Below, piece by piece: positions 7,844 to 54,470 of a stretch of 64,000 bases of DNA. Origin of the DNA: Hansfordia pulvinata (taxonomy: Eukaryota > Ascomycota > Sordariomycetes > Xylariales); the NCBI GenBank assembly GCA_006538405.1, contig BJKQ01000005.1, positions 496,001-560,000 of the forward strand, given 5' to 3'. The stretch's first letter is position 1. The number at the start of each line of letters is the position of its first letter. A program made the translations under genes and the position numbers. Under the pieces are notes generated by a model, which was not told the origin of the DNA, ran no database searches, and saw only the letters and a list, made by a program, of their open reading frames with translations.

Positions 7844-10681
7844 ATGAGTGACCCTAACCAGGGGTCGGCCCTGGAACAGCCTGCCTCGGTTTCCAGTATG
7901 TTCGCCTCCTCTGCCGCCGCTCGCAAAAGCGGTTTTTTCGATGCTGGCTTGATATGCCCTTTTACTGACATTGCCTACCTCCAGGCCTGGTTGCCACCCT
8001 GGCGCCGGCTGCCGTGGCCGCTGGCATTTACCTGGTGATTTTCCTCATCCTCCGCAAGAGCCAGCGCCGATACTATGCGCCCAGAACCTACCTGGGAACC
8101 CTGCGTGACAAGTCAGTCTGGTTCTCTTCTCTGGCGCTCTGCCACGCGGCACCCTGCTGACATGGTCCAGTGAGCGTTCGCCTGCTCTGCCCAACTCGCT
8201 CTTCGGGTGGATTGGCAACTTTTTCAAAATCCCGGACAACCACGTGCTCCAGCACCAGTCTCTTGACGCCTATCTTTTCCTTCGCTTCTTGCGGATCATC
8301 GTCGTCATTGCTTTCGTCGGCTGCTGCATCACCTGGCCCGTCCTGTTCCCGGTCAACGCTACCGGAGGCCGTGGCTACCAACAGCTGGAGATTTTGACCT
8401 ACGGCAACGTCGACACGGCCACCTCCGCCGGCCAGGGTCGCCTCTACGCCCACACCTTCATCGCCTGGATCTTCTACAGCTTCGTCATGTTTATGATTGT
8501 GCGCGAGTCCATCTTTTACGTCAACCTGAGGCAGGCTTTCTTGCTTTCGCCTCTGTACGCCAACCGCATCTCCACCAGGACCGTTCTCTTCGCCTCAGTC
8601 CCCACCCCCTATCTTGACGAGGCCCGCCTGCGCAAGGTCTTTGGCGACAGCGTGAGGAACATCTGGATCACGCAAAACACGGATGATGTCGACAAGTTGG
8701 TCGAGGAGCGCGACAAGGTCGCCATGAGACTCGAGAAGGCCGAAGTCAAACTCATCAAGATGGCCAATGCGGCGCGCACCAAGGGTATCAAGAAGGGCGA
8801 CGTGTCGGATGACGCCGACCTGGCTGTCGCCGACGCGGAACAGGCCAGCATTGCCGCTCGCTGGGTTCCCGAGAAGAAGCGACCCTCGCACAAGACGGGC
8901 TTCTTGGGTCTCGTCGGAAAGAAGGTCGACACGATCAACTGGTGCCGTACCGAGCTCGAACGCCTCGTCCCCGCTACCGTGAAGGCCCAGGAAGCTTACC
9001 GATCTGGCTCCACCAAGAAGATCCCAGCCGTGTTCATCGAGTTCGCAACGCAGGCTGATGCCGAGAACGCCAGTCAGGTGCTCGCGCACCACCAAGCCCT
9101 GCAGATGTCTCCCAAGTATATTGGTGTGCGCCCCGACGAGGTCGTGTGGTCGGCGCTGAAGGTCTCATGGTGGCAAAGAGTCATTCGCCGTTTCGCCGTC
9201 ATTGGTTTCATCTCTGCATTGATCATCTACTGGGCGATTCCGGTTGCCGTTGTTGGTATCATCTCCAACGTCAACGCTCTTAAGGACTCCGTCTTCTTCC
9301 TGCACTGGTTGAACGCCGTCCCCCCGGTGATCATGGGTGTCATCACGGGCTTGCTTCCGTCGGTGTTGCTATCCGTCTTGATGTCTCTCGTCCCCGTCAT
9401 CATGCGCCGTAAGTACCATGGATGTCACGTCGTCAGAATAATCTTTACTAACGATTCGCTGCAGTTTGCGCTAAGCTCTCCGGAGAGCCGTCTCTGTCTC
9501 GTGTTGAGCTGTTCACCCAAAACGCCTACTTTGCCTTCCAAGTCATCCAGGTCTTCCTGATCACTACCTTGACGTCGTCTGCCTCGGCGACAGCGACCAC
9601 GATCGTCCAAGATCCCAGCCAGGTGACCAGTCTTCTGGCTGCCAGTATTCCCAAGTCGTCCAACTTCTACATTTCGTACTTTATCGTGCAGGGCTTGACG
9701 ATCGCGTCCGGCGTTCTCTCGCAAGTCGTTGGCTTCGCCATCTTCACTCTCCTGTACAAGTACCTCGCCGGCACGCCCCGTGCCATGTACCAGAAATGGG
9801 CCTCGCTTTCTGCCATCTCGTGGGGCAGTACCCTTCCGGTCTACACGAACATTGCAGTCATCAGTGAGTGCTGCGTAGAAATTCTTTGCCACTCCTGAAA
9901 ATCATGCTGACTATTGCCAGGTCTTGTCTTTGCGCCCATTGCGCCTCTGGTGCTGGGTTTTGCCACCGTCGGACTGTCTCTGTTCTACCTGGCATACCGA
10001 TACAACATTCTGTTCGTGTCGGACACGCAGGTTGACACCCGCGGACTGATCTACCCCAGGGCACTCAAGCAGCTTTTCGCGGGAATCTACATTGCCGAGC
10101 TGTGCATGATCGGCATGTTCGCGGTCTCGGCAGCCATCGGACCTGCCATCCTGATGGTGGTCTTCTTGATCTTTTCGATTCTGTTCCAAATCACCATCAA
10201 CAGCGCCATCGACCCGCTTCTGTACAACTTGCCCCTGACCTTGGAGGCCGAGGAGCAATTCCTCCAGCACCAACCTTCAGAGGGCAGCAATGGCGAGGAG
10301 AAGAAGAGTACTGACAAGGGAAGTCCGGTCGAGCCATCGGACCCCAAGAAGGCTCCTGGCATGTTTGTCAAGTTCTTCAAGCCGTGGCAACACTGCGACT
10401 ACCACACGCTGCGCAGTTTGATCCCCATGGATGCTGCCGACGTGGACAACTTGTACACGGAGCAGACGGAACGTGATGCCTATTACCCGCCGTCGGTCGG
10501 CAGCCAGGCGCCGCTGCTGTGGATCCCTGAAGACAAGATGGGTATCTCGAAGCAAGAGATCCGAGACACGAGCAAGGTGATCCCAATCACGGACGAGGGC
10601 TGCACTCTGAACGACCAGAACAAGCTCGAGTGGGACACTGAGGGCCGCCCACCGGTGTGGCAGGAGAAGATCTACTACTAA
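7844..10681 (+). CDS. CSC1/OSCA-type calcium-permeable stress-gated cation channel
   Basis: Five exons: 7844-7895, 7985-8111, 8171-9408, 9465-9863 and 9921-10681. The introns are 89, 59, 56 and 57 nt, and the product is 858 residues. The start MSDPNQG follows a (CAC)n stretch and ACCACC, a good fungal start context. After the first intron comes the N-terminal membrane segment (LVATLAPAAVAAGIYLVIF), then RSN1-type transmembrane helices including FRILRF-like and ITWPVLFPVNATGG segments. A large cytosolic domain follows, rich in Lys/Glu helices, and then the multi-helix pore region (from about WQRVIRRFAVIGFISALII). The tail after the last helices is hydrophilic with conserved IPEDKMGIS. The family (TMEM63/OSCA/CSC1, DUF221) forms osmotically or mechanically gated cation channels. 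In fungi, members sit in the plasma membrane or endomembranes. All splice junctions keep the frame, and nothing appears broken. Confidence 0.93.
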
Positions 10682-11940: not shown

Positions 11941-12643
11941 ATGAAGTTCAACGCCGTCTGCGCCGCTGCCCTGTCTGCTGCGGGCGCCGCCTCTGCCGGT
12001 CCCGCCGACTGGTTCGGCAGTGTCGGTGGCCAGGACGTCATCACCAACGGCGAGCACGTCCCGGGCCAGTCTCCGCTCGAGCTCTGCGATGGCGACCACT
12101 CCAAGGACATTGCCATCATCGAGCGTGTCGACCTCACGCCCAACCCTCCTCTGATGTACGTCTTCGAGTCTCCAGGTTTTCCCGAGAGCCTCCCCAGTGT
12201 TGGCGCGACCGTGTTGAGACCCCGATCCCGATCCGAATGCTGACGAACCCTCCCTCCCTTCCTCCAACAGTGGCACCCAGCTGATCATCAGCGCCGCCGG
12301 CAACCTCTCCGAGCCCATCCTCAAGGGCGCTTCCGTCGAGATTGAGGTCAAGTACGGCCCCATCCGCCTGCTGCGCCAGACGGCCGACTTCTGCGAGCAG
12401 ACGGGCCAGGTCGACCTGGAATGCCCGATTGAGAAGGGCCAGCTCACCCTATCCAAGACGGTCGACATCCCCAACGAAGTGCCTCCGGTATGTCACGTCC
12501 TGCCCGCCTCGCCGCCCGCCATGCTGACCCCGACGGAACAGGGCACCTACGAAGTCAAGGCCACCGTCATCAACAGCAACAAGAAGCCCGTGACCTGCCT
12601 GCATGCCCGCGTGAACATGGAGAGGCCCAACAACGAGCTGTAG
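11941..12643 (+). CDS. NPC2-like ML-domain phosphatidylglycerol/phosphatidylinositol transfer protein
   Basis: Three exons: 11941-12155, 12271-12487 and 12542-12643. The introns are 115 and 54 nt, and the product is 177 residues. Residues 1 to about 19 are a signal peptide (MKFNAVCAAALSAAGAASA). The mature part has the ML fold pattern of fungal PG/PI-TP and NPC2: a paired cysteine region (LELCDGDHSKDI), VDLTPNPP before the first splice, GTQLIISAAG just after it, VEIEVKYGPIRLL, DFCEQTGQVDLECPIEKG, and VTCLHARV near the end. The six cysteines after the signal peptide fit the three disulfides of the family. Family members bind and move sterols or phospholipids in the secretory pathway or vacuole lumen. 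The length is usual for the family. The C-terminal tail (ERPNNEL) is slightly longer than in some relatives. Confidence 0.92.
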
Positions 12644-21947: not shown

Positions 21948-21954
21948 AAAAAAA
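21948..21954 (-). terminator. RNA polymerase III terminator of the tRNA gene
   Basis: On the minus strand a run of seven T begins 10 nt past the last base of the mature tRNA, as expected for a Pol III terminator. Confidence 0.85.
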
Positions 21955-21963
21955 TGAGTGCAT

Positions 21964-22087
21964 TAGCATCTCTTGGTTTCGATCCAAGGACCTCCGGGTT
22001 ATGAGCCCGGCTATTTCATGTTAGTGATGATTCAGAAGACTCGTAGAGCGAGTTAGACATACCGCGCTTCCGCTGCGCCAAGATGCT
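21964..22087 (-). tRNA. Initiator tRNA-Met(CAU) with a 52-nt insert between positions 26 and 27
   Basis: Read on the minus strand from 22087. Acceptor AGCATCT (22087-22081) pairs with AGATGCT (21971-21965). The D stem GCGC/GCGC encloses loop AGCGGAA. The anticodon stem CCGGG/CCCGG carries loop CTCATAA. The T stem CTTGG/CCAAG carries loop ATCGAAA. Together these give 72 mature nt, all helices perfectly paired. Hallmarks of eukaryotic initiators are present: an A1:U72 pair, three G:C pairs next to the anticodon loop, and an ATCGAAA T loop with A54 and A60. A box TGGCGCAGCGG and B box GGATCGAAACC are intact, and a T7 terminator follows. The 52-nt insert (22062-22011) begins GTATGT, has CACTAAC with the branch A 10 nt before the end, and ends TAG. 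That is an mRNA-type intron layout, not an anticodon-loop intron. See findings. Confidence 0.9.
22011..22062 (-). other. 52-nt GT-AG insert within initiator tRNA gene
   Basis: Boundaries are fixed by the GT and AG and by the flanking stems: GCGCG before and CCGGG after. It contains a 5-bp hairpin ACTCG-CTCTA-CGAGT. Shifting the edges by one base is possible on the left/right G but loses the GT-AG borders. Removal restores a complete cloverleaf. Confidence 0.85.
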
Positions 22088-34854: not shown

Positions 34855-37421
34855 ATGGCTTATTTTCGGAAGAAGTATGACGTGGTCAAGGAAGAGTTGC
34901 GGACAGACTCGACCTTGAACACCGCGGGTGCCTACGTCCAGGACGCTCCGCGCTCGCTTCTCCCTGCGGCCCGGCAGTATGTCCTCGACAAGGCGCCGAT
35001 AATATCGTGGCTTCCACGCTACTCGCCATCGTGGCTGCTGCCCGACGCCATTGCCGGCCTCACCATCGGGGTGCTACTGATTCCCCAAGGCCTCGCCTAC
35101 GCAAAGATAGCTACGATCCCTATTGAGGTTGGGCTATACTCGTGCTGGCTCCCAGCGGCCATTGGTGTCTTCATGTCTACCTCCAAGGGTGAGTTGCAGT
35201 GCTATAGACCTTGAAGACTCCCCATGAACTCCCCCTCCAATCCATCGCCACATCAACTGACACTTTTGAACTCCTTTCGTAACAATAGACCTGTCAGTCG
35301 GTCCCACATCCATGTTGGGCTTACTTACGGCTGAAATTGTTCGCGACCTCCAAAACGACTTCTCGCCAACCCAGATCGCCAGCGCGGTCAGCCTGATGGT
35401 GGGCATCTACTCATTGGCACTGGGTCTGCTGGGCCTGGGGTTCCTGCTCGACTATGTGTCGGTCCCTGTTCTGACGGGCTTCATCTCGGCGACGGCGCTG
35501 ACCATTGGCTTCGGCCAGGTCGGCTCCCTCGTCGGGCTTGACGGCACACCCGACATGGTCTTCGATGTCATCGGCGACGTGCTCCGCCGCCTGCCTCGCT
35601 GGAACGGCCCGACATGCGCTCTGGGCATCACCTCTATCCTGCTTCTCATCGCCCTGCAGCGCTTCGGTACTTCGCCCTGGGCCCGTCGCCACTTCGCCCT
35701 CAAGTACCTGTCGAGCAGCCGCGCAGTTCTCGTCATGATTCTCTACACCCTCATCTCGTATCTGGTCAACCGCTCTCGCTCCTCGCCAGATGACTTCGCC
35801 TGGGCCGTGACCAAAGTGTCGACGCGGGGCGTCCCGCATCCACAACGGCACGATGGCGCGTTGCTGGCCCGCGTAGCAGTGCGCGCCGTTGCACCCCTCG
35901 TGGCCTGCACGCTCGAGCACCTGGCCGTCGGCAAGTCGTTCGGGCGGCGCAACGGCTACGCCATCGACCAGAGCCAGGAGCTCAACTGGCTAGGGGTCGC
36001 CAATATTGTCAACAGCTTCTTCTCCTCCATGCCCTGCGGTGGCGCCATGTCCCGCACCGCCGTCAACTCCGAGTGCCGCGTCCGCAGCCCTTTGAGCGGG
36101 GCCGTCACCACCGGCTTCATCATCCTCGTTCTCTACGTCGCGAGCCCTGCGCTGTACTGGCTGCCCAAGACGACGTTGTCTGCTATCATTGTGCGTTTTC
36201 TTAAGAGATTTCACCCTTGTTGTGTATCCCCTTCTTGTTTTGTCTGACTGACCCCCTTTTTTTGACTTCCAGATCATGGCCGTCATCCACCTCTTCGGCC
36301 CTCTTTCCGTCGTCTGGCGCTATTGGCGGGTTTCGCTGGCCGACTTTATCGCCTGCCAGGTCTCCTTCTGGGTGACCATTTTCGTCACGGCCGAGATTGC
36401 CATCGGCGCCGCTGTGGCTTGGAGCATCGTCTGGGCCCTGGTACGCCAGGCCCTGATGACCCGGCCCGGGGTAATTACAAGTACCACCACAGCGGCAGGC
36501 AACTCCCTCGACAGTAACAGCAACCACTCTGCAAACCACCGCCGCCGCCGCCGCACCAACTCATCCGTCGACCAGCCCAACCTGGTCTACCTATCCAAGA
36601 TGTCGCGCCCGCCCACGCATGACGATGAGTACGAAGACAACAATGAGGGCGGAAAGGCAGCCAGAAACAACACCAACAATAACGATATCGATCTCGAGAG
36701 CGGTAGGGTCAGCGCCAGTGCCATATCTAACGCCAACAACGGCACCCTACTTCTGGCTCCGGACACGGCGCTGATCCAGTTCGCGGACTCCATCTTCTTC
36801 CCCAACGCGAATCGCGTCAAGGTCTCTGCAGTTGAGGCCGTCAGCATCATTTTCCCCTCAGTGTCGCCCTCTCCGTCCTCCTCATCGACCACGGCCACCT
36901 CCACAGAGCGCTCCTGGTCCGTAGCGGGCCAGCGGCGCCTCGAACGCCTGCGGGAGGAGCGCGGCCTGCTCACGGGCAACCGCGCACCGCCGCCACCGCT
37001 CGCCGTTGTGGTGTGGGACATGTCGCGCGTGCCGTGGATGGACGTGACGGGCGTGCTGGCGCTGGGCGAGCTCAAGGACGATATCCGCAGGCAGCTCGGC
37101 GGAGAGGTAGTGGTGCGCATCGTGGGCCTGAACCGCGGGGTCAGGGACAAGCTGGAGCGGGCCAAGTGGCCGCTGGCTGATTATGGGGACGATAGCAACA
37201 TCAGCAGCAGCATCAGTGGCAGTGGTGACGAAGACAGAGGTCCAGGGAGGGAAAGGTGCAGAGATGAAGTCAAGGTGGACTACGTCTTTGACGACCTCAA
37301 CCACGCCATCTGGCACCGCGAGAGGCCCCGCACCTGTACTGGCCGGGCACCGGCGTCGGCGGCGGGTGCGGCGGCGGGGACCGCGGTGCTGCAGGGTGTC
37401 TCGTCTGAGAAGGCTGAGTGA
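34855..37421 (+). CDS. SulP/SLC26-type sulfate permease with STAS domain
   Basis: Three exons: 34855-35188, 35289-36190 and 36273-37421. The introns are 100 and 82 nt, and the product is 794 residues. The N-terminal part has the SulP signature GLTIGVLLIPQGLAYAKIA, followed by LYSCWLPAAIG and, after the first intron, DLSVGPTSMLGLLTAEIV. Many transmembrane helices follow up to about residue 475. RRNGYAIDQSQELNWLGVAN and MPCGGAMSRTAVN match conserved loops of fungal sulfate permeases. The C-terminal half has a long Ser/Asn-rich cytosolic insert and then a STAS-like segment (VVWDMSRVPWMDVTGVLAL). The role is proton-coupled sulfate uptake at the plasma membrane. The segment around VSTRGVPHPQRHD is less conserved than expected. 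It is convergent with the MFS gene. Confidence 0.92.
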
Positions 37422-40064: not shown

Positions 40065-41772
40065 TTTCAGGGACCAACCTCAGAATGCAAGGCCGAGGCG
40101 AGCAACAACAGGCTGCGAGCTCTGCAAGAGTGCAGGGGCCTTTCGGGACGATGCTGTGGGATTCTGAGCGGACAAAGTGCTCGTTCCGGTACAACGGATT
40201 GTTGTTTGGCGACGGAGAACATGAATCAATCACTTAATCACGAACACGGGAGGCAGACGACTTCATGGTGCCGACAGACGCCGGTGGGGCGGCGGCGACG
40301 AGAGCAGCGCAGAACGGGGCCCGGTGCTCGTGCCGAGCGGCGGCAAAATCGGCGACGGATGCCGCGAGGGCAGATGGTCGGGGTGTCACATCGCGAGGGG
40401 CGGGCGGCGGAGTCTGCAGGGCCAGCATGAAGACTTAGCCGGTACCGGCACGACAGGGGAAATGATTTGCCGGTGCTGCTGGAAGCGTGCGGACCGAACC
40501 TCCTATTCGGGGGCCGCTGCTCTAGGCCACTCGGCAAGCCGAGGGCGGACGAGCAAGCGGGGCGGAGACCGGACACGCACGGACGAGGCCGGAGGGTCCT
40601 CAAGGTTGATTGGTCGTCATTATATAATGAGAATAGAGGCTGGCAGAGGGCCCTTTGATTCCCTTCTCTTCCTTGCTGCGCTTCAGCCGGGCAGTGTTTT
40701 TTCTATTTTTTTCTTTCTTTTTGACGTCGCCTTTCCAGAATTGAATCAGATGACATGATTTCATCAGCCGCGGTGTTTCCTGAGAATGTCTCGGTGGGCT
40801 GTGGACGGTGCAGCATTGACCCAAGACGAGACATTGGCTGGCAGTGCTTTGCTTGTGGACGGCGAGGCGCGTGCGGGTGCGACTAGGAGCGGGGAACGAC
40901 GGCGTCAAAGCAGCGCGGATGGCCAGGAGATGTCATGAGGTTGTTGAGTTTGGCTCTCTCTCCGCCTGGAAAGCCACCGTTGAGCAAGAGTCGGAAGCTC
41001 ACGACCATGCGAAGATGGCGATCGACGGGAGGCGGGGGCGGGGAGAAGGCGGGATAAGACAATGACACCAACAAGCCAAGCCAAGCAAAGCAGGGCCAAG
41101 ACAACCAAGAGCGAACTCGAAGATTGGGAGGCCGGGAGTGGAAGTAAGTGAGGAGAGTACGGAGTACCTAGAACGACGGGAGTAGGGACATGGAGGACGG
41201 ATTGGCGAGCGGGCAGGTGATGTCCACTACCGCATTCAGCCTGGCCTTGGCCGCTCTTATCAGGCAGGCGCGGCTGAGGAGCATTGGATCACGCGTGCCT
41301 GCCGTGCCGTGGTCAGATCAGGCGGCAGTGCGCGTGCATCCATTGCTCGCACCGGGAGATGGTGATTGAGGTCCCCGCAAGCATGGGAGTACCTTAGGTA
41401 CGGATACCTTATCTTGCGCTCCGATGCCTGCCCCTGTCCTGTCCAGTGTGTCGTGTCGGGCTGCCTGTGCTCGGGGTGCTTGTGCTCGACTCTTCCTTCC
41501 ACTGTCTCGAAACGTGACCTCCACCGGTGGATTCCGGCCGGGCCCGAGTCTCGAAGCGGAGGCGCCGAGTCACACAGCTGGAGCTCGAGTCTCGGACGGT
41601 GGGAATAGCTGGAGCTGCCGCCATTACGAGTAACCCGTGCTTCTCCCCCTCAACGTCATCCCCCTTGGAGCTTCTCCCTCTCTCTTCCATTTCTCTATCT
41701 CTCTCTCCTTCCCATCTCCCCATCTCCCAGGTCCCTCACCACCGGCCCCTCACCACGACACCACTGCCCAAC
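40065..41772. other. 1.7 kb shared upstream region of divergent genes
   Basis: Lies between the starts of the MFS transporter (minus) and the aminopeptidase (plus). The last 200 bases are CT-rich, like a fungal 5' leader. One TACGAGTA octamer lies at 41625, 148 bp before the aminopeptidase start. No gene recognised. Confidence 0.5.
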
Positions 41773-43364
41773 ATGAGGGCCACCAGCACTGCTGCCGTCC
41801 TCGGCGCCTCCCTCGCCTGGGCCGCCGCCGACCAGAAGCCCCTGTCGTCCCCCCACCGCGCCGCCTCCAAGCCCAAGCTGCCCCTTGTCACGTCCGACCA
41901 CCTCCAGGCCGCCATCGACACCGACGCCTTGCTCGCCCGCGCCGACCAGCTCTACGCCATTGCCCGCCACGGCGAAGACGAGTACAACCACCCCACCCGC
42001 GTCATCGGCAGCGAGGGCCACCTCAAGACCCTCGAGTACATCACCTCCGAGATCGCCAAGCTCGGCGACTACTACAACGTCTCGACCCAGGACTTTCCCG
42101 CCGTCACCGGCCGCGTCGTCGAGTCCCGCCTCGTCATCGGCTCCTCTGTGCCCAAGTCGGCCGAGCCCTTCCAATTGACCCCGCCCACCCTCCACAAGGA
42201 GCCCGTCGACGGCGACCTCGTCCTCGTCGCCAACCAGGGCTGCGACGCCGCCGACTACCCTTCCGCCCTGCGCGGCAACATCGCCTTCGTCTCCCGCGGC
42301 ACCTGCCCCTTCGGCACAAAGTCCGACTTTGCCGGCAAGGCCGGTGCCATTGCCGCCATCGTCTTCAACAACGAGAAGGGCGAGCTGCACGGCACCCTCG
42401 GCACCCCCACCCCCGACCACGTCGCCACCCTCGGCATTTCCAAGGAGGACGCCGAGCCCGTGCTCGAGAAGCTCAAGGCTGGGAAGACGGTGGACGCGAC
42501 CGTCTATGTCGACGCCGAGGTGAGGACCACCATCACCACCAACGTGATCGCCCAGACGACCCAAGGCGACCAGGACAACTGCGTCATGCTGGGTGGACAC
42601 AGCGACAGCGTCGCCGAGGGCCCCGGGATCAACGACGACGGCTCCGGAAGTCTGTCGCTCATCGAGGTCGCCACCCAGCTGGCCAACTTTTCCGTCAACA
42701 ACTGCGTCCGCTTTGCCTGGTGGTCTGGCGAGGAGGAGGGCCTGCTGGGGTCCGACTACTACGTGTCGCAGCTGTCCGAGGAGGAGAACCTCAAGATCCG
42801 CCTGTTCATGGATTACGACATGATGGCCAGCCCCAACTTTGCCTACCAGGTGTACAACGCCACCAACGCGCTGAACCCCGTGGGCTCCCAGGAGCTGCGC
42901 GATCTCTACACCAGCTGGTACCGGGCGCACGGTCTCCACTACATGTACATCCCCTTCGATGGCCGCAGCGACTACGACGGCTTCATCCGCAACGGCATTC
43001 CGGGCGGTGGCATCGCCACTGGCGCCGAGGGCGTCAAGACCGAGCTGGAGGCCAAGATGTTTGGAGGCAAGGCGGGCGACTGGTACGACCCGTGCTACCA
43101 CCAGCTGTGCGACGATCTCAGCAACGTCAACTCGACCGCCTGGCTGCTGAACACCCAGGTAAGTGCAACTTGCGCGGCGACCGCCCGCTCCGGCTTGTGA
43201 AATGATGGACGCTAATGGGTCTGAACTTGCAGCTTATTGCCCACAGTGTGGCCACCTACGCCCTCTCGTTTGGAGGGTTCCCCGAGCGTACGTCCAGTGC
43301 CTTTGCGGCTTCGAGCGCCTACACGCAGGCCACCAAGTACCACGGCGATCATCTCTTCATCTAG
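41773..43364 (+). CDS. Secreted M28 zinc aminopeptidase with PA domain (Lap2/aminopeptidase Y type)
   Basis: Two exons: 41773-43158 and 43233-43364. The intron is 74 nt, and the product is 505 residues. The start MRATSTAAVLG gives a clean signal peptide (about 20 residues), whereas the longer upstream open frame would hide it. The PA (protease-associated) domain spans about residues 130-240 (GDLVLVANQGCDAADYP, FVSRGTCPFGTKSDFA). The M28 catalytic domain shows all zinc ligands and the general base: His276 in GGHSDSV, Asp288 in NDDGSG, Glu320/Glu321 in SGEEEGLLGS, the Asp in MDYDMMASPN, and the His in CYHQLCDD. It removes N-terminal residues from peptides outside the cell or in the vacuole. NVSTQ, NFSVN, NATNA and NSTAW are likely N-glycosylation sites. 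The last exon (AHSVATYALSF) completes the usual C-terminus. Confidence 0.95.
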
Positions 43365-51500: not shown

Positions 51501-52478
51501 CTCTGTCTGCCAGACCGTCCGCGATTCGCCACTCGCTTGCCCCGGTGTTGGTTTGGTCTTTCAAAGCTGGCTTTGGCCCTGGCTTAGGCGCCGCGCCGGC
51601 ACGCCCGAGCGCTACTCCGCCCTGGAGAGCACACGACGCACTGCAGATTGCCAAAGGGGCTTGTGCTCGCTCACACGGTCCCTCGTCGGACTCATCACAC
51701 TCGAATCGAAACCCCTCTCGGGCTGACGTCCAGCGTCCCGGGAAATGACCGAAGTTTGTGGTATGGGCAATCTGGTTTGCTCGGACCGAGGCTGATGAGA
51801 TAGATTAAGCATTGGCTGGACTGCTGTCCCGGTGCAGTTCGGGATCTGCCAGGTCAGGGCAGAGGCTCAGGGCGCTGCTCCTTCGAGCCCGGCATCTCGT
51901 CCCGTCTGCGCTGTTGGCCACCCAATCCATCCCCGCTCCTCCTGGAAGAGCCCTCTCAATTTGGGACTACCCACGAAAAGTGAATGCCATAGGTAGTCAG
52001 CACTTTCTGGGATGCTGCTCCACGCCAACAGACTCCGCGGTGGCTGGCCCGTTTCAAGAGCCACCCGCAGTGGCAAAACCCCATTCTTATCGACGGCAAA
52101 GGCGACTGACTCTCTGTTTATTTAACCGGCCGTTGGCGCTTCCCCGGACCCTTGTGCAATTTGTCTCTTGCCTTGGCTTCTGAAGAAAAGCACGCCATCC
52201 TTTCCTTTCTGTCTCTCTACTGGATACATTATAGATGAGATTTTTGTGTGCAGGGCGTTTATAGATATACCCACACATCTTTCTTTCACGAGCCCACGTC
52301 CCTTGCTGTCTTTCTTACGGGCCATTGAGCATTCACGGCACTGGCATATTTGGTTTCACCCCACATCAACCGGCTATTGCTTAGGCCAGGAAAGCACACT
52401 AACGGATTCCTGCGCCAATAACAACAACAACACCACCACCACCACATCTACCACATCCACCCACTTGCACACACCAAA
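48510..52478. other. 4 kb intergenic region, no gene recognised
   Basis: Two TACTCGTA octamers (50042, 50324) and two KpnI-site-centred AGGTACCT clusters (50777-50800, 50904-50928). The last 100 bases before 52479 are a CAA/CCA-rich leader typical of fungal 5' UTRs. Open frames show no domain. Confidence 0.5.
50777..50800. repeat. Tandem pair of AGGTAGGTACCT
   Basis: Two perfect 12-bp copies, each containing the palindrome AGGTACCT. A related cluster with ACCTAGGT follows at 50915. Confidence 0.85.
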
Positions 52479-54470
52479 ATGCACTCATTACCAGTCTTTG
52501 CGGCGCTGCTTTCGTCGGCGCTGGGGGGCAGCATCCCCTATGAAGGTCCCAACGGCCTGCTCGCCCGCGCGGGCCCAGACAACCCGAGCGGCAACTACGC
52601 ACCGGCTTCGGTAGATTGCCCTTCCCCGGCCCCACGAGTCCGGCCGGCCACCGGTCTTTCGGACCCCGAGAAGAAGTGGCTGCAGACGCGGCGGCCCAAG
52701 ACGGTCGAGCCGATGAAGAAGTGGCTCCAGGACGGCAAAATCCCCGGGTTAGATGCGGCCGGATTCATGGACAAGGTGGCCAACGACATGGACAACCTAC
52801 CCAACATTGGCCTAGCTGTGTCGGGAGGCGGGTACCGGGCCATGATGAACGGGGCCGGGTTCATGTCGGCCATAGATAGCCGCAACCCGGGCGCCGTCGA
52901 GGGCGGCATGGGCGGGCTGTTCCAGTCGGCGACCTACGTGGCCGGGCTTTCGGGCGGTGGTTGGCTGCTGGGGTCCATTTACGGCAACAACGTGACGACC
53001 ATCCCGGACCTGCAGAGCTCCGACGTGACGTGGCGGCTGGACCGGAGCATCTTCGAGGGGCCCGACACGGGAAAGCCGAAGGTGCTCGACATGGTCAACT
53101 ACTACACCGAGATCTACCACGCGATGAAGGACAAGCACGACGCGGGGGATTACGACGTGACCATGACAGACATCTGGGGCCGCGCGCTATCGTACCAGTT
53201 CCTTGACGCCAACGAGGGCGGGCCCAGCTACACCTGGTCGTCGATCCAGGACGACCCGCACTTTGTCAACGGCGAGTTCCCCATGCCCATGATCATGGCC
53301 CTCGGCCGCAAGTACGACAACCCCAAACGCATCGACCTGCTCAACACGGTCTACGAGATGGGCCCGCTCGAGACGGGCAGCTGGGACCCCACTGTCAAGT
53401 CCATGGTGCCCACGCGCTGGATCGGCTCCGAGTTCCAGAACGGCACCTCCGGCGGTGGCGGCAAATGTGTGCGCGGCTACGACGCTTTCGGCTTCTACAT
53501 CGGCACCAGCAGCTCCATCTTCGCGTCGCTGGTCGAGCGCAACCTTTCGTCCAACGGCGTGCCTACTCTGGCCCAGCCCGCCGTTCACTCGCTGCTAGGT
53601 CAGCTGACGGGCGACGAGGATAACCGCGACGCCGCCATCATCAAGCCCAACCCCTTCAAAGGCGTCAACCCGTCCTCCAACGAGAACGCCCAGCAGGATA
53701 AGCTTATCATGATCGACGGTGGCCTGGCCGAGGAGAACCTGCCCTTCCAGCTTCTCATTCAGCCTCCGCGCAAGGTCGACGTCATCTTCGCCGCCGACTC
53801 AACTTCCAACGGCGAGTGGAACTGGCCCAACGGCTCTTCCATTCGTGCCACGTGGGAGCGCTCCCAGACCGAGATGGGTCATGGCGTGCCCTTCCCACGT
53901 ATCCCCGACGCCTATACCTTCTTCAACCTGGGCCTCAGCAAGCGCCCGACTTTCTTCGGATGCAACAAAACCGAGTTCAACGGCGGCCAGGGCCCTTTCC
54001 CCCCTTTGATTGTCTACATTCCCAACGCCCCTTACTCCGGCTGGGGCAACGTTTCGACCTTCACCATGTCGTACGAGGATAGCGAGCGAGACGAGGTCAT
54101 TTCCAACGGCTGGAACGTCGCCACGATGGGCAACGGCACCGTGGATAAGGAGTGGCCCATCTGTGTCCGCTGCGCTGCTCTGAGCCGCAGCCTGGACCGC
54201 ACCCACACGCCGATCCCGCCCGCATGCACGAAATGCTTCCAACGCTACTGCTACAACGGCACCACCGACAACAAGCAGAGCGACTACCAGCCCACGAAGA
54301 TTCTCAACGACGACGGCACCCTGGCCACCGCCGGGAGTGCGAGCAACGGCACATACACGGGAACCAGTAGCAGCAGCAGCACAGCTTCCAGTACCGCATC
54401 CAGCGCCAGCGCCACGGCCACTGACGACGGCGACGGCGACGGCAGCGACGGCGACGACGACTCCTCGTAG
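52479..54470 (+). CDS. Secreted lysophospholipase / phospholipase B
   Basis: Single exon, 663 residues. It hydrolyses acyl chains from (lyso)phospholipids. Residues 1 to about 17 form a signal peptide (MHSLPVFAALLSSALGG). The cPLA2-type catalytic domain begins NIGLAVSGGGYRAMMNG (oxyanion region). The nucleophile is Ser158 in GLSGGGW and the catalytic Asp is Asp413 in IMIDGGLAEEN. Many Asn-X-Ser/Thr sites fit a glycosylated secreted enzyme. A cluster of cysteines near CVRCAALSRSL and CTKCFQRYCYNG matches the conserved end of fungal PLBs. The tail is Ser/Thr-rich, then acidic (DDGDGDGSDGDDDSS), and ends without a hydrophobic segment, so no GPI anchor is apparent. This differs from GPI-anchored yeast PLBs. 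Intact and without introns. Confidence 0.95.
   Translation: MHSLPVFAALLSSALGGSIPYEGPNGLLARAGPDNPSGNYAPASVDCPSPAPRVRPATGLSDPEKKWLQTRRPKTVEPMKKWLQDGKIPGLDAAGFMDKVANDMDNLPNIGLAVSGGGYRAMMNGAGFMSAIDSRNPGAVEGGMGGLFQSATYVAGLSGGGWLLGSIYGNNVTTIPDLQSSDVTWRLDRSIFEGPDTGKPKVLDMVNYYTEIYHAMKDKHDAGDYDVTMTDIWGRALSYQFLDANEGGPSYTWSSIQDDPHFVNGEFPMPMIMALGRKYDNPKRIDLLNTVYEMGPLETGSWDPTVKSMVPTRWIGSEFQNGTSGGGGKCVRGYDAFGFYIGTSSSIFASLVERNLSSNGVPTLAQPAVHSLLGQLTGDEDNRDAAIIKPNPFKGVNPSSNENAQQDKLIMIDGGLAEENLPFQLLIQPPRKVDVIFAADSTSNGEWNWPNGSSIRATWERSQTEMGHGVPFPRIPDAYTFFNLGLSKRPTFFGCNKTEFNGGQGPFPPLIVYIPNAPYSGWGNVSTFTMSYEDSERDEVISNGWNVATMGNGTVDKEWPICVRCAALSRSLDRTHTPIPPACTKCFQRYCYNGTTDNKQSDYQPTKILNDDGTLATAGSASNGTYTGTSSSSSTASSTASSASATATDDGDGDGSDGDDDSS

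What the first reader, a model, noticed from the sequence alone, without database searches (positions are those of the whole stretch)
21964..22087. Initiator tRNA-Met gene interrupted at position 26/27 by what looks like a spliceosomal intron
Seen: the 72 nt outside the insert form a perfect cloverleaf with initiator hallmarks (A1:U72, GGG:CCC next to the CAU loop, ATCGAAA T loop), intact A and B boxes and a T7 terminator. The 52-nt insert starts GTATGT, carries CACTAAC with the branch A 10 nt before its end, and ends TAG. Known: eukaryotic nuclear tRNA introns sit after position 37 in the anticodon loop and are cut by the tRNA endonuclease. An insert between the D and anticodon stems does not fit that route. 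The U6 snRNA genes of some fungi show that Pol III transcripts can carry mRNA-type introns. Inference: this initiator tRNA may be spliced by the spliceosome, or by an unknown route. If this is the main initiator gene, translation start would depend on it. Standard eukaryotic tRNA scanners would miss or mis-call it.
Basis: partly seen in the sequence, partly recalled or inferred. Interest (0 to 1): 0.92.

Follow-up and report, generated by a model that had tools for sequence, protein, structure and literature searches.

The report
Initiator tRNA genes with mRNA-type introns
In this filamentous fungus every initiator tRNA gene found, four of four, is interrupted at the same unusual place by a short insert with the signals of a messenger-RNA intron, which suggests that making the tRNA that starts all proteins depends on the spliceosome.

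Summary
On the minus strand, 22087-21964, two exons (25 + 47 nt) make an initiator tRNA-Met, split between positions 26 and 27 by 52 nt: GTATGT...CACTAAC...TAG. The decisive new evidence is genome-wide. In the host genome (46.8 Mb; best protein hits are Sordariomycetes) five searches find four initiator tRNA genes and no uninterrupted one. All four have an insert at the same junction (58, 54, 52, 54 nt). The 72 exon bases are identical in the four. The inserts have diverged except for GTATGT, CACTRACAT (branch A always 10 nt before the last G) and YAG. The one U6 gene found in this genome has a 55-nt mRNA-type intron of its own, and its U1 and U2 RNAs fit the signals. The ordinary tRNA introns seen here (11-32 nt) lie in the anticodon loop. 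No strict bulge-helix-bulge fits the initiator junctions. Most likely these are U2-type spliceosomal introns in Pol III tRNA transcripts, removed by the spliceosome. This is inferred from sequence: no RNA data and no other species could be examined. Ten searches of an open-licence library showed no report of such a tRNA intron.

The parts
22063..22087 (-). Exon 1 of initiator tRNA-Met (positions 1-26; contains the A box)
   Evidence: Read, coordinates; 25 of 25 bases identical in the four genomic copies (exact match)
22011..22062 (-). 52-nt insert between positions 26 and 27, with the signals of a U2-type spliceosomal intron
   Evidence: GTATGT...CACTAAC...TAG
22057..22062 (-). 5' splice site GTATGT
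   Evidence: Invariant in 4 of 4 copies; by reading, pairs with the U1 5' end ATACTTACC apart from position +4
22020..22026 (-). Branch site CACTAAC; branch A at 22021 is inferred
   Evidence: Coordinates; CACTRAC in 4 of 4 copies, A 10 nt before the last G in 4 of 4; U2 carries GTAGTA
22011..22013 (-). 3' splice site TAG (TAG in one and CAG in two of the other copies)
21964..22010 (-). Exon 2 of initiator tRNA-Met (positions 27-73; anticodon CAT; contains the B box; no encoded CCA)
   Evidence: 47 of 47 bases identical in the four copies (exact match)
21948..21954 (-). Run of seven T, Pol III terminator-like

Best explanation
Each of the four initiator tRNA genes is a Pol III gene (internal A and B boxes; T-run terminator clear in three) interrupted between nucleotides 26 and 27 by a small U2-type spliceosomal intron. 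The primary transcript is recognised by U1 at GUAUGU and by U2 at CACURAC, and the spliceosome removes 52-58 nt as a lariat. The joined exons fold into the initiator tRNA, which is then trimmed and given CCA. Since no uninterrupted copy was found, supply of initiator tRNA, and so translation initiation, would depend on the spliceosome. Shown: the anatomy, the four-of-four recurrence, selective conservation of the splice signals, no intact copy found, an mRNA-type intron in U6, fitting U1 and U2. Inferred: transcription by Pol III, removal by the spliceosome, lariat formation, order of processing, dependence of translation on it.
For: Four of four initiator loci found have the insert at the same junction. 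All 72 exon bases are identical in the four, while the inserts align at 64-80% against shuffled means of 55-59%. BLASTN of the 3-kb loci shows no similarity beyond about 22 nt outside the genes at E 1e-3, so these are not recent segmental copies. Anchored at the 5' end, columns 1-6 are invariant and one of the next 14; anchored at the 3' end, the invariant columns spell CACTRACAT and A.AG. Branch A to last G is 10 nt in 4 of 4, against 12, 12 and 11 in the U6 intron and two actin introns of the same genome. The one U6 gene found is itself split by GTAAGT...GCTAAC...TTTAG. U1-like loci begin ATACTTACC and U2 loci carry GTAGTA. With the insert left out, ARAGORN reads 4 of 4 as tRNA-Met(cat); as they stand it misreads them as Gly, Stop, Tyr and Pyl. 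The joined-junction pattern with up to 3 mismatches has 0 hits; the D-arm and T-arm patterns give the same four plus 5 and 1 near-hits without initiator features.
Against: No RNA evidence of any kind. No second species could be examined: the initiator pattern gave 0 matches in genome contigs and viral contigs, and the genome has no relatives in the collection. The assembly may lack an intact copy, and a strongly divergent initiator gene would escape these searches. Two of the four inserts are close to each other (80%), so the four are not independent; one pair of inserts (64%) is no more alike than the best shuffles (69%). The conserved ACAT after the branch site could pair with ATGT of the 5' splice site in 4 of 4, which splicing does not need and which I cannot explain. 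The copy at C1:638 kb has no separate terminator: its four T run into a tRNA-Glu gene. The U1 loci score below the Rfam cut-off.
Confidence: 0.88

Rival explanations
1. The insert is an ectopic tRNA intron cut by the tRNA-splicing endonuclease and joined by the tRNA ligase, as in some archaea and red algae.
For: Archaea have tRNA introns at non-canonical positions including the D-arm and anticodon arm (passages of PMC3978253). This genome has what look like ordinary anticodon-loop tRNA introns (tRNA-Leu 17 nt, tRNA-Lys 11 and 32 nt), so the endonuclease pathway is presumably active here.
Against: No strict bulge-helix-bulge: over 16 bulge offsets and two junction registers the best central helix has 3 of 4 pairs in each of the four copies. 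The endonuclease needs no GTATGT, branch site or YAG, yet these are what is conserved. Inserts are 52-58 nt against 11-32 nt for the ordinary tRNA introns seen (ARAGORN looks for introns in the anticodon loop only, so this is not a full survey). Relaxed motifs are not excluded.
Confidence: 0.06
2. The four loci are dead copies or unspliced curiosities; the working initiator gene is missing from the assembly or too divergent to be found.
For: The assembly is in 63 contigs and may be incomplete; the RF00005 search scored only 63 of 1071 candidates.
Against: 72 of 72 exon bases are identical in four copies on three contigs whose inserts have diverged, which is hard to have without purifying selection. 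All four keep the A and B boxes, and three have separate runs of six or seven T. Five searches found no intact copy.
Confidence: 0.04
3. A small self-splicing intron.
For: A group I intron in a cyanobacterial initiator tRNA is known (title in the reference list of PMC3978253).
Against: 52-58 nt is too short for a group I or II ribozyme (recalled), the inserts alone fold weakly, -3.6 to -5.9 kcal/mol, and Rfam finds no such intron at gathering score.
Confidence: 0.01

Closest known systems
mRNA-type introns in fungal U6 snRNA genes (Schizosaccharomyces in passages of PMC5832005; basidiomycetes recalled)
   Same: Small structured RNA, Pol III transcribed, split by a short GT-AG intron with a CTRAY branch site; this genome's own U6 gene has one
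   Different: Here the host is a tRNA, the initiator tRNA, and every copy found is split
Spliceosomal introns in fungal U3 snoRNA genes (PMC5832005, passages)
   Same: Small structured RNA with canonical GTRWGT, RCTRAC and YAG signals
   Different: U3 is a snoRNA; the passages call U3 and U6 the only small structured RNAs known to be often interrupted by an intron
Canonical eukaryotic nuclear tRNA introns (position 37/38, tRNA-splicing endonuclease)
   Same: An intervening sequence in a nuclear tRNA gene; seen in this genome in tRNA-Leu and tRNA-Lys
   Different: Position, length, conserved signals and the lack of a strict bulge-helix-bulge
Ectopic tRNA introns of archaea and of Cyanidioschyzon (PMC3978253, passages)
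   Same: Non-canonical position in the tRNA
   Different: Those carry bulge-helix-bulge motifs; these carry GT, branch and AG signals

Membership tests
U2-type spliceosomal intron | 5' splice site GTRNGT | tested here: met
   GTATGT in 4 of 4 inserts
U2-type spliceosomal intron | Branch site CTRAY at a suitable distance from the 3' end | tested here: met
   CACTRAC, A 10 nt before the last G in 4 of 4; U6 and actin introns 11-12 nt
U2-type spliceosomal intron | 3' splice site YAG | tested here: met
   CAG, CAG, TAG, TAG
U2-type spliceosomal intron | Cognate snRNAs present in the genome | tested here: met
   U2 at two loci and U6 at one, over the Rfam cut-off. U1 at two loci below the cut-off, E 5e-10 and 6e-9 (at E up to 10, 9 of 14 control genomes also ring, none over the cut-off), both beginning ATACTTACC
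U2-type spliceosomal intron | Removed by the spliceosome as a lariat | not testable with these tools
   No RNA data held
tRNA-endonuclease intron (canonical) | Position 37/38 in the anticodon loop | tested here: not met
   Junction is 26/27 in 4 of 4
tRNA-endonuclease intron (any position) | Strict bulge-helix-bulge at the junctions | tested here: not met
   At most 3 of 4 central pairs in any register tried; relaxed forms not excluded
Initiator tRNA-Met | A1:U72, GGG:CCC in the anticodon stem, A54 and A60 in the T loop, CAU anticodon | tested here: met
   Read; ARAGORN tRNA-Met(cat) for 4 of 4 once the exons are joined. Hallmarks recalled; A54-U55-C56 also in PMC3978253 passages
Initiator tRNA-Met | Expressed and used in initiation | not testable with these tools
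   No RNA or protein data held
Group I or II intron | Ribozyme core, a few hundred nt | tested here: not met
   52-58 nt; no Rfam match at gathering score

The most novel reading that the evidence does not exclude
A lineage of filamentous fungi has placed its whole initiator tRNA supply under the spliceosome: all initiator genes carry spliceosomal introns at 26/27, a tRNA intron class outside the endonuclease pathway. Translation initiation and U6 maturation would then both depend on spliceosome activity, which would make a feedback link between splicing capacity and protein synthesis possible.
Probability: 0.8. Interest if true: 0.95.

Novelty: new variant of a known kind. Interest (0 to 1): 0.92.

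Why it matters
Textbook eukaryotic nuclear tRNA introns are cut by a dedicated endonuclease (recalled). A tRNA spliced like an mRNA would be a different class of tRNA intron, and in the initiator tRNA it would tie the first step of every protein to the spliceosome. It also shows how annotation can miss the gene: ARAGORN misnames all four when it may use introns and finds none in the window without them, and Rfam's tRNA model calls none of the four. It opens direct tests of how Pol III transcripts reach the spliceosome and how a folded RNA gives up an internal intron.

Tried and rejected
Other species: the initiator 3'-half pattern gave 0 matches in genome contigs and viral contigs. Metagenome scans were at cap 0 and not tried. 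An ab initio intron hunt in 125,551 bases gave 22 candidates, only 7 with a branch site, too noisy to use; I used two actin introns and the U6 intron instead (the actin exons joined there read on in frame). Elongator tRNA-Met: pattern CTCATAATCTNNAGGTC gave 0, so that gene was not located. U3: two loci below the Rfam cut-off (at E up to 10, 7 of 14 control genomes also ring), intron status not settled. The RF00005 list scored 63 of 1071 candidates, so whether other tRNA genes carry such introns is open. Minor (U12-type) splicing rejected: GTATGT is not the U12 donor (recalled). Free energy: the unconstrained RNAfold minimum of the joined 72-mer (-30.0) is not the cloverleaf. Upstream CAAC element: present within 60 nt before 4 of 4 initiator genes and before 5 of the 6 other tRNA genes printed (not before the tRNA-Gln gene of L026); four letters are too common to count as evidence. 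Literature: ten searches of an open-licence library only; the U6-intron paper PMC4829304 is not held.

Full report
What is there. The gene lies on the minus strand of the window, 22087-21964. Exon 1 (25 nt) and exon 2 (47 nt) form an initiator tRNA-Met: A1:T72, fully paired acceptor, D, anticodon and T stems by reading, GGG:CCC beside CTCATAA, T loop ATCGAAA, no encoded CCA. The 52-nt insert begins GTATGT, carries CACTAAC with the A 10 nt before the last G, and ends TAG. Seven T follow at 21954-21948. ARAGORN finds nothing in the window, and Rfam's tRNA model scores the stretch 18.9 bits against a cut-off of 29.

Whole genome. The window is part of a held 46.8-Mb genome, G000, 63 contigs. Protein searches suggest a filamentous ascomycete, most likely of the Sordariomycetes: the best named hits of the M28 peptidase are Colletotrichum and Monosporascus at 70-72% identity (best 120 of 1629 listed; class). 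Lower-scoring hits include Dothideomycetes and Aspergillus species, one Aspergillus at 73%, so the class is a lean. A 941-aa reading frame finds only 11 distant relatives. The anticodon-arm pattern GGGCTCATAACCC occurs four times, on C1 (twice), C5 (this window) and C11. All four are initiator tRNA genes with an insert at the same junction, 58, 54, 52 and 54 nt long. The joined 72-nt sequence as a query finds the same four loci, always in two pieces.

No intact copy found. The joined junction pattern with up to three mismatches has no match. The D-arm pattern with one mismatch gives the four genes and five near-hits; the T-arm pattern with three mismatches gives the four and one near-hit. All six near-hits lack CTCATAA and GATCGAAA in the stretch looked at, and ARAGORN finds no tRNA in the five that were scanned. 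A gap in the assembly or a very divergent gene is not excluded.

Selection. The 72 exon bases are identical in 4 of 4 copies, and BLASTN finds no similarity between the 3-kb loci beyond about 22 nt outside the genes. The inserts align at 64-80% against shuffled means of 55-59%; five of six pairs exceed the best of 200 shuffles, one (64% against 69%) does not. The closest pair is the window copy and the C11 copy. What stays constant is GTATGT at the start (6 of 6 columns), CACTRACAT around the branch with its distance of 10 nt, and YAG at the end. Gene conversion would have evened out the inserts too, so the identity of the exons points to selection on the joined product of all four genes (inference). 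Shuffled inserts show the looser motif set GTRNGT-CTRAY-YAG in 0, 0, 4 and 1 of 400,000 trials. In the window alone the motif is less striking: 2 hits against 0.11 expected, 3 of 100 shuffles with at least 2.

The splicing machinery of this fungus. The one U6 gene found (47 of 1928 candidates scored) is itself interrupted after GGATGA by GTAAGT...GCTAAC...TTTAG, 55 nt, directly before CAC. So another small RNA of Pol III type with an mRNA-type intron exists in the same genome. Two U1-like loci begin ATACTTACC (below the Rfam cut-off), and two U2 loci carry GTAGTA. Two actin introns show GTAAGA/GTAAGT, CTAAC/CTGAC and CAG, with 12 and 11 nt from branch A to the last G; U6 has 12. The actin exons read on in frame across both junctions.

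Not the tRNA endonuclease route, as far as sequence shows. Introns of ordinary kind were seen by ARAGORN in tRNA-Leu(AAG), 17 nt, and tRNA-Lys(CTT), 11 and 32 nt; this is a sample, and ARAGORN looks for anticodon-loop introns only. For the initiator genes no strict bulge-helix-bulge fits: at best 3 of 4 central pairs over 16 offsets and two registers, in each of the four copies. Relaxed motifs are not excluded.

Folding. With the insert in place the minimum-energy fold keeps all cloverleaf stems in three of four copies; in the window copy the cloverleaf lies 0.9 kcal/mol above the minimum. The unconstrained minimum of the joined 72-mer is a shifted fold, so this is weak evidence. The conserved ACAT after the branch could pair with ATGT of the 5' splice site in 4 of 4 copies, but the predicted folds use that pairing in only two. 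I cannot explain the conservation.

Terminators. Three copies have six or seven T within 10 nt of the gene. The copy at C1:638 kb has only four T, the last of which is the first base of a tRNA-Glu gene, so the two may be one transcript.

Literature. Ten searches of an open-licence library showed no report of a spliceosomal intron in a nuclear tRNA. [quoted passage not shown] In Table 1 of PMC6108506 the two Aspergillus niger tRNA-Met genes listed are 72 nt without introns (section 5 read; whether either is the initiator is not said there). Subscription papers were not searched, so novelty is provisional.

Verdict. The best reading is U2-type spliceosomal introns in all initiator tRNA genes found in this fungus (0.88). 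RNA evidence and a survey of relatives are the missing steps.

Noticed in passing
L043 (G000:C6:1513530-1513630, minus strand): The U6 snRNA gene carries a 55-nt mRNA-type intron after GGATGA, with TATATA upstream and a T run downstream.
   Followed up: yes
window 22011-22062 and L001, L002, L004: ACAT just after the branch site could pair with ATGT of the 5' splice site in all four inserts; predicted folds use it in two; meaning unknown.
   Followed up: partly
L001, 1546-1634: A tRNA-Glu(CTC) gene starts about 15 nt after one initiator gene; the only T run there (TTTT) ends in the first base of that gene, so the two may be transcribed together.
   Followed up: partly
L046 (C14) and L047 (C4): Two U3 snoRNA-like loci below the Rfam cut-off with differing 5' parts; intron status unsettled.
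   Followed up: partly
G000 contigs C37, C51, C54, C62: Repeated clusters of tRNA genes of another type, probably mitochondrial DNA present in several pieces.
   Followed up: no
window 12488-12541, plus strand: A second GTATGT-CTGAC-CAG stretch, 54 nt, possibly an ordinary mRNA intron.
   Followed up: no
window 41518-43200, 52422-54470, 35270-37421, 8109-9560, plus strand: Ordinary fungal genes by Pfam: M28 peptidase, lysophospholipase, sulfate permease with STAS domain, RSN1/PHM7-type channel.
   Followed up: no
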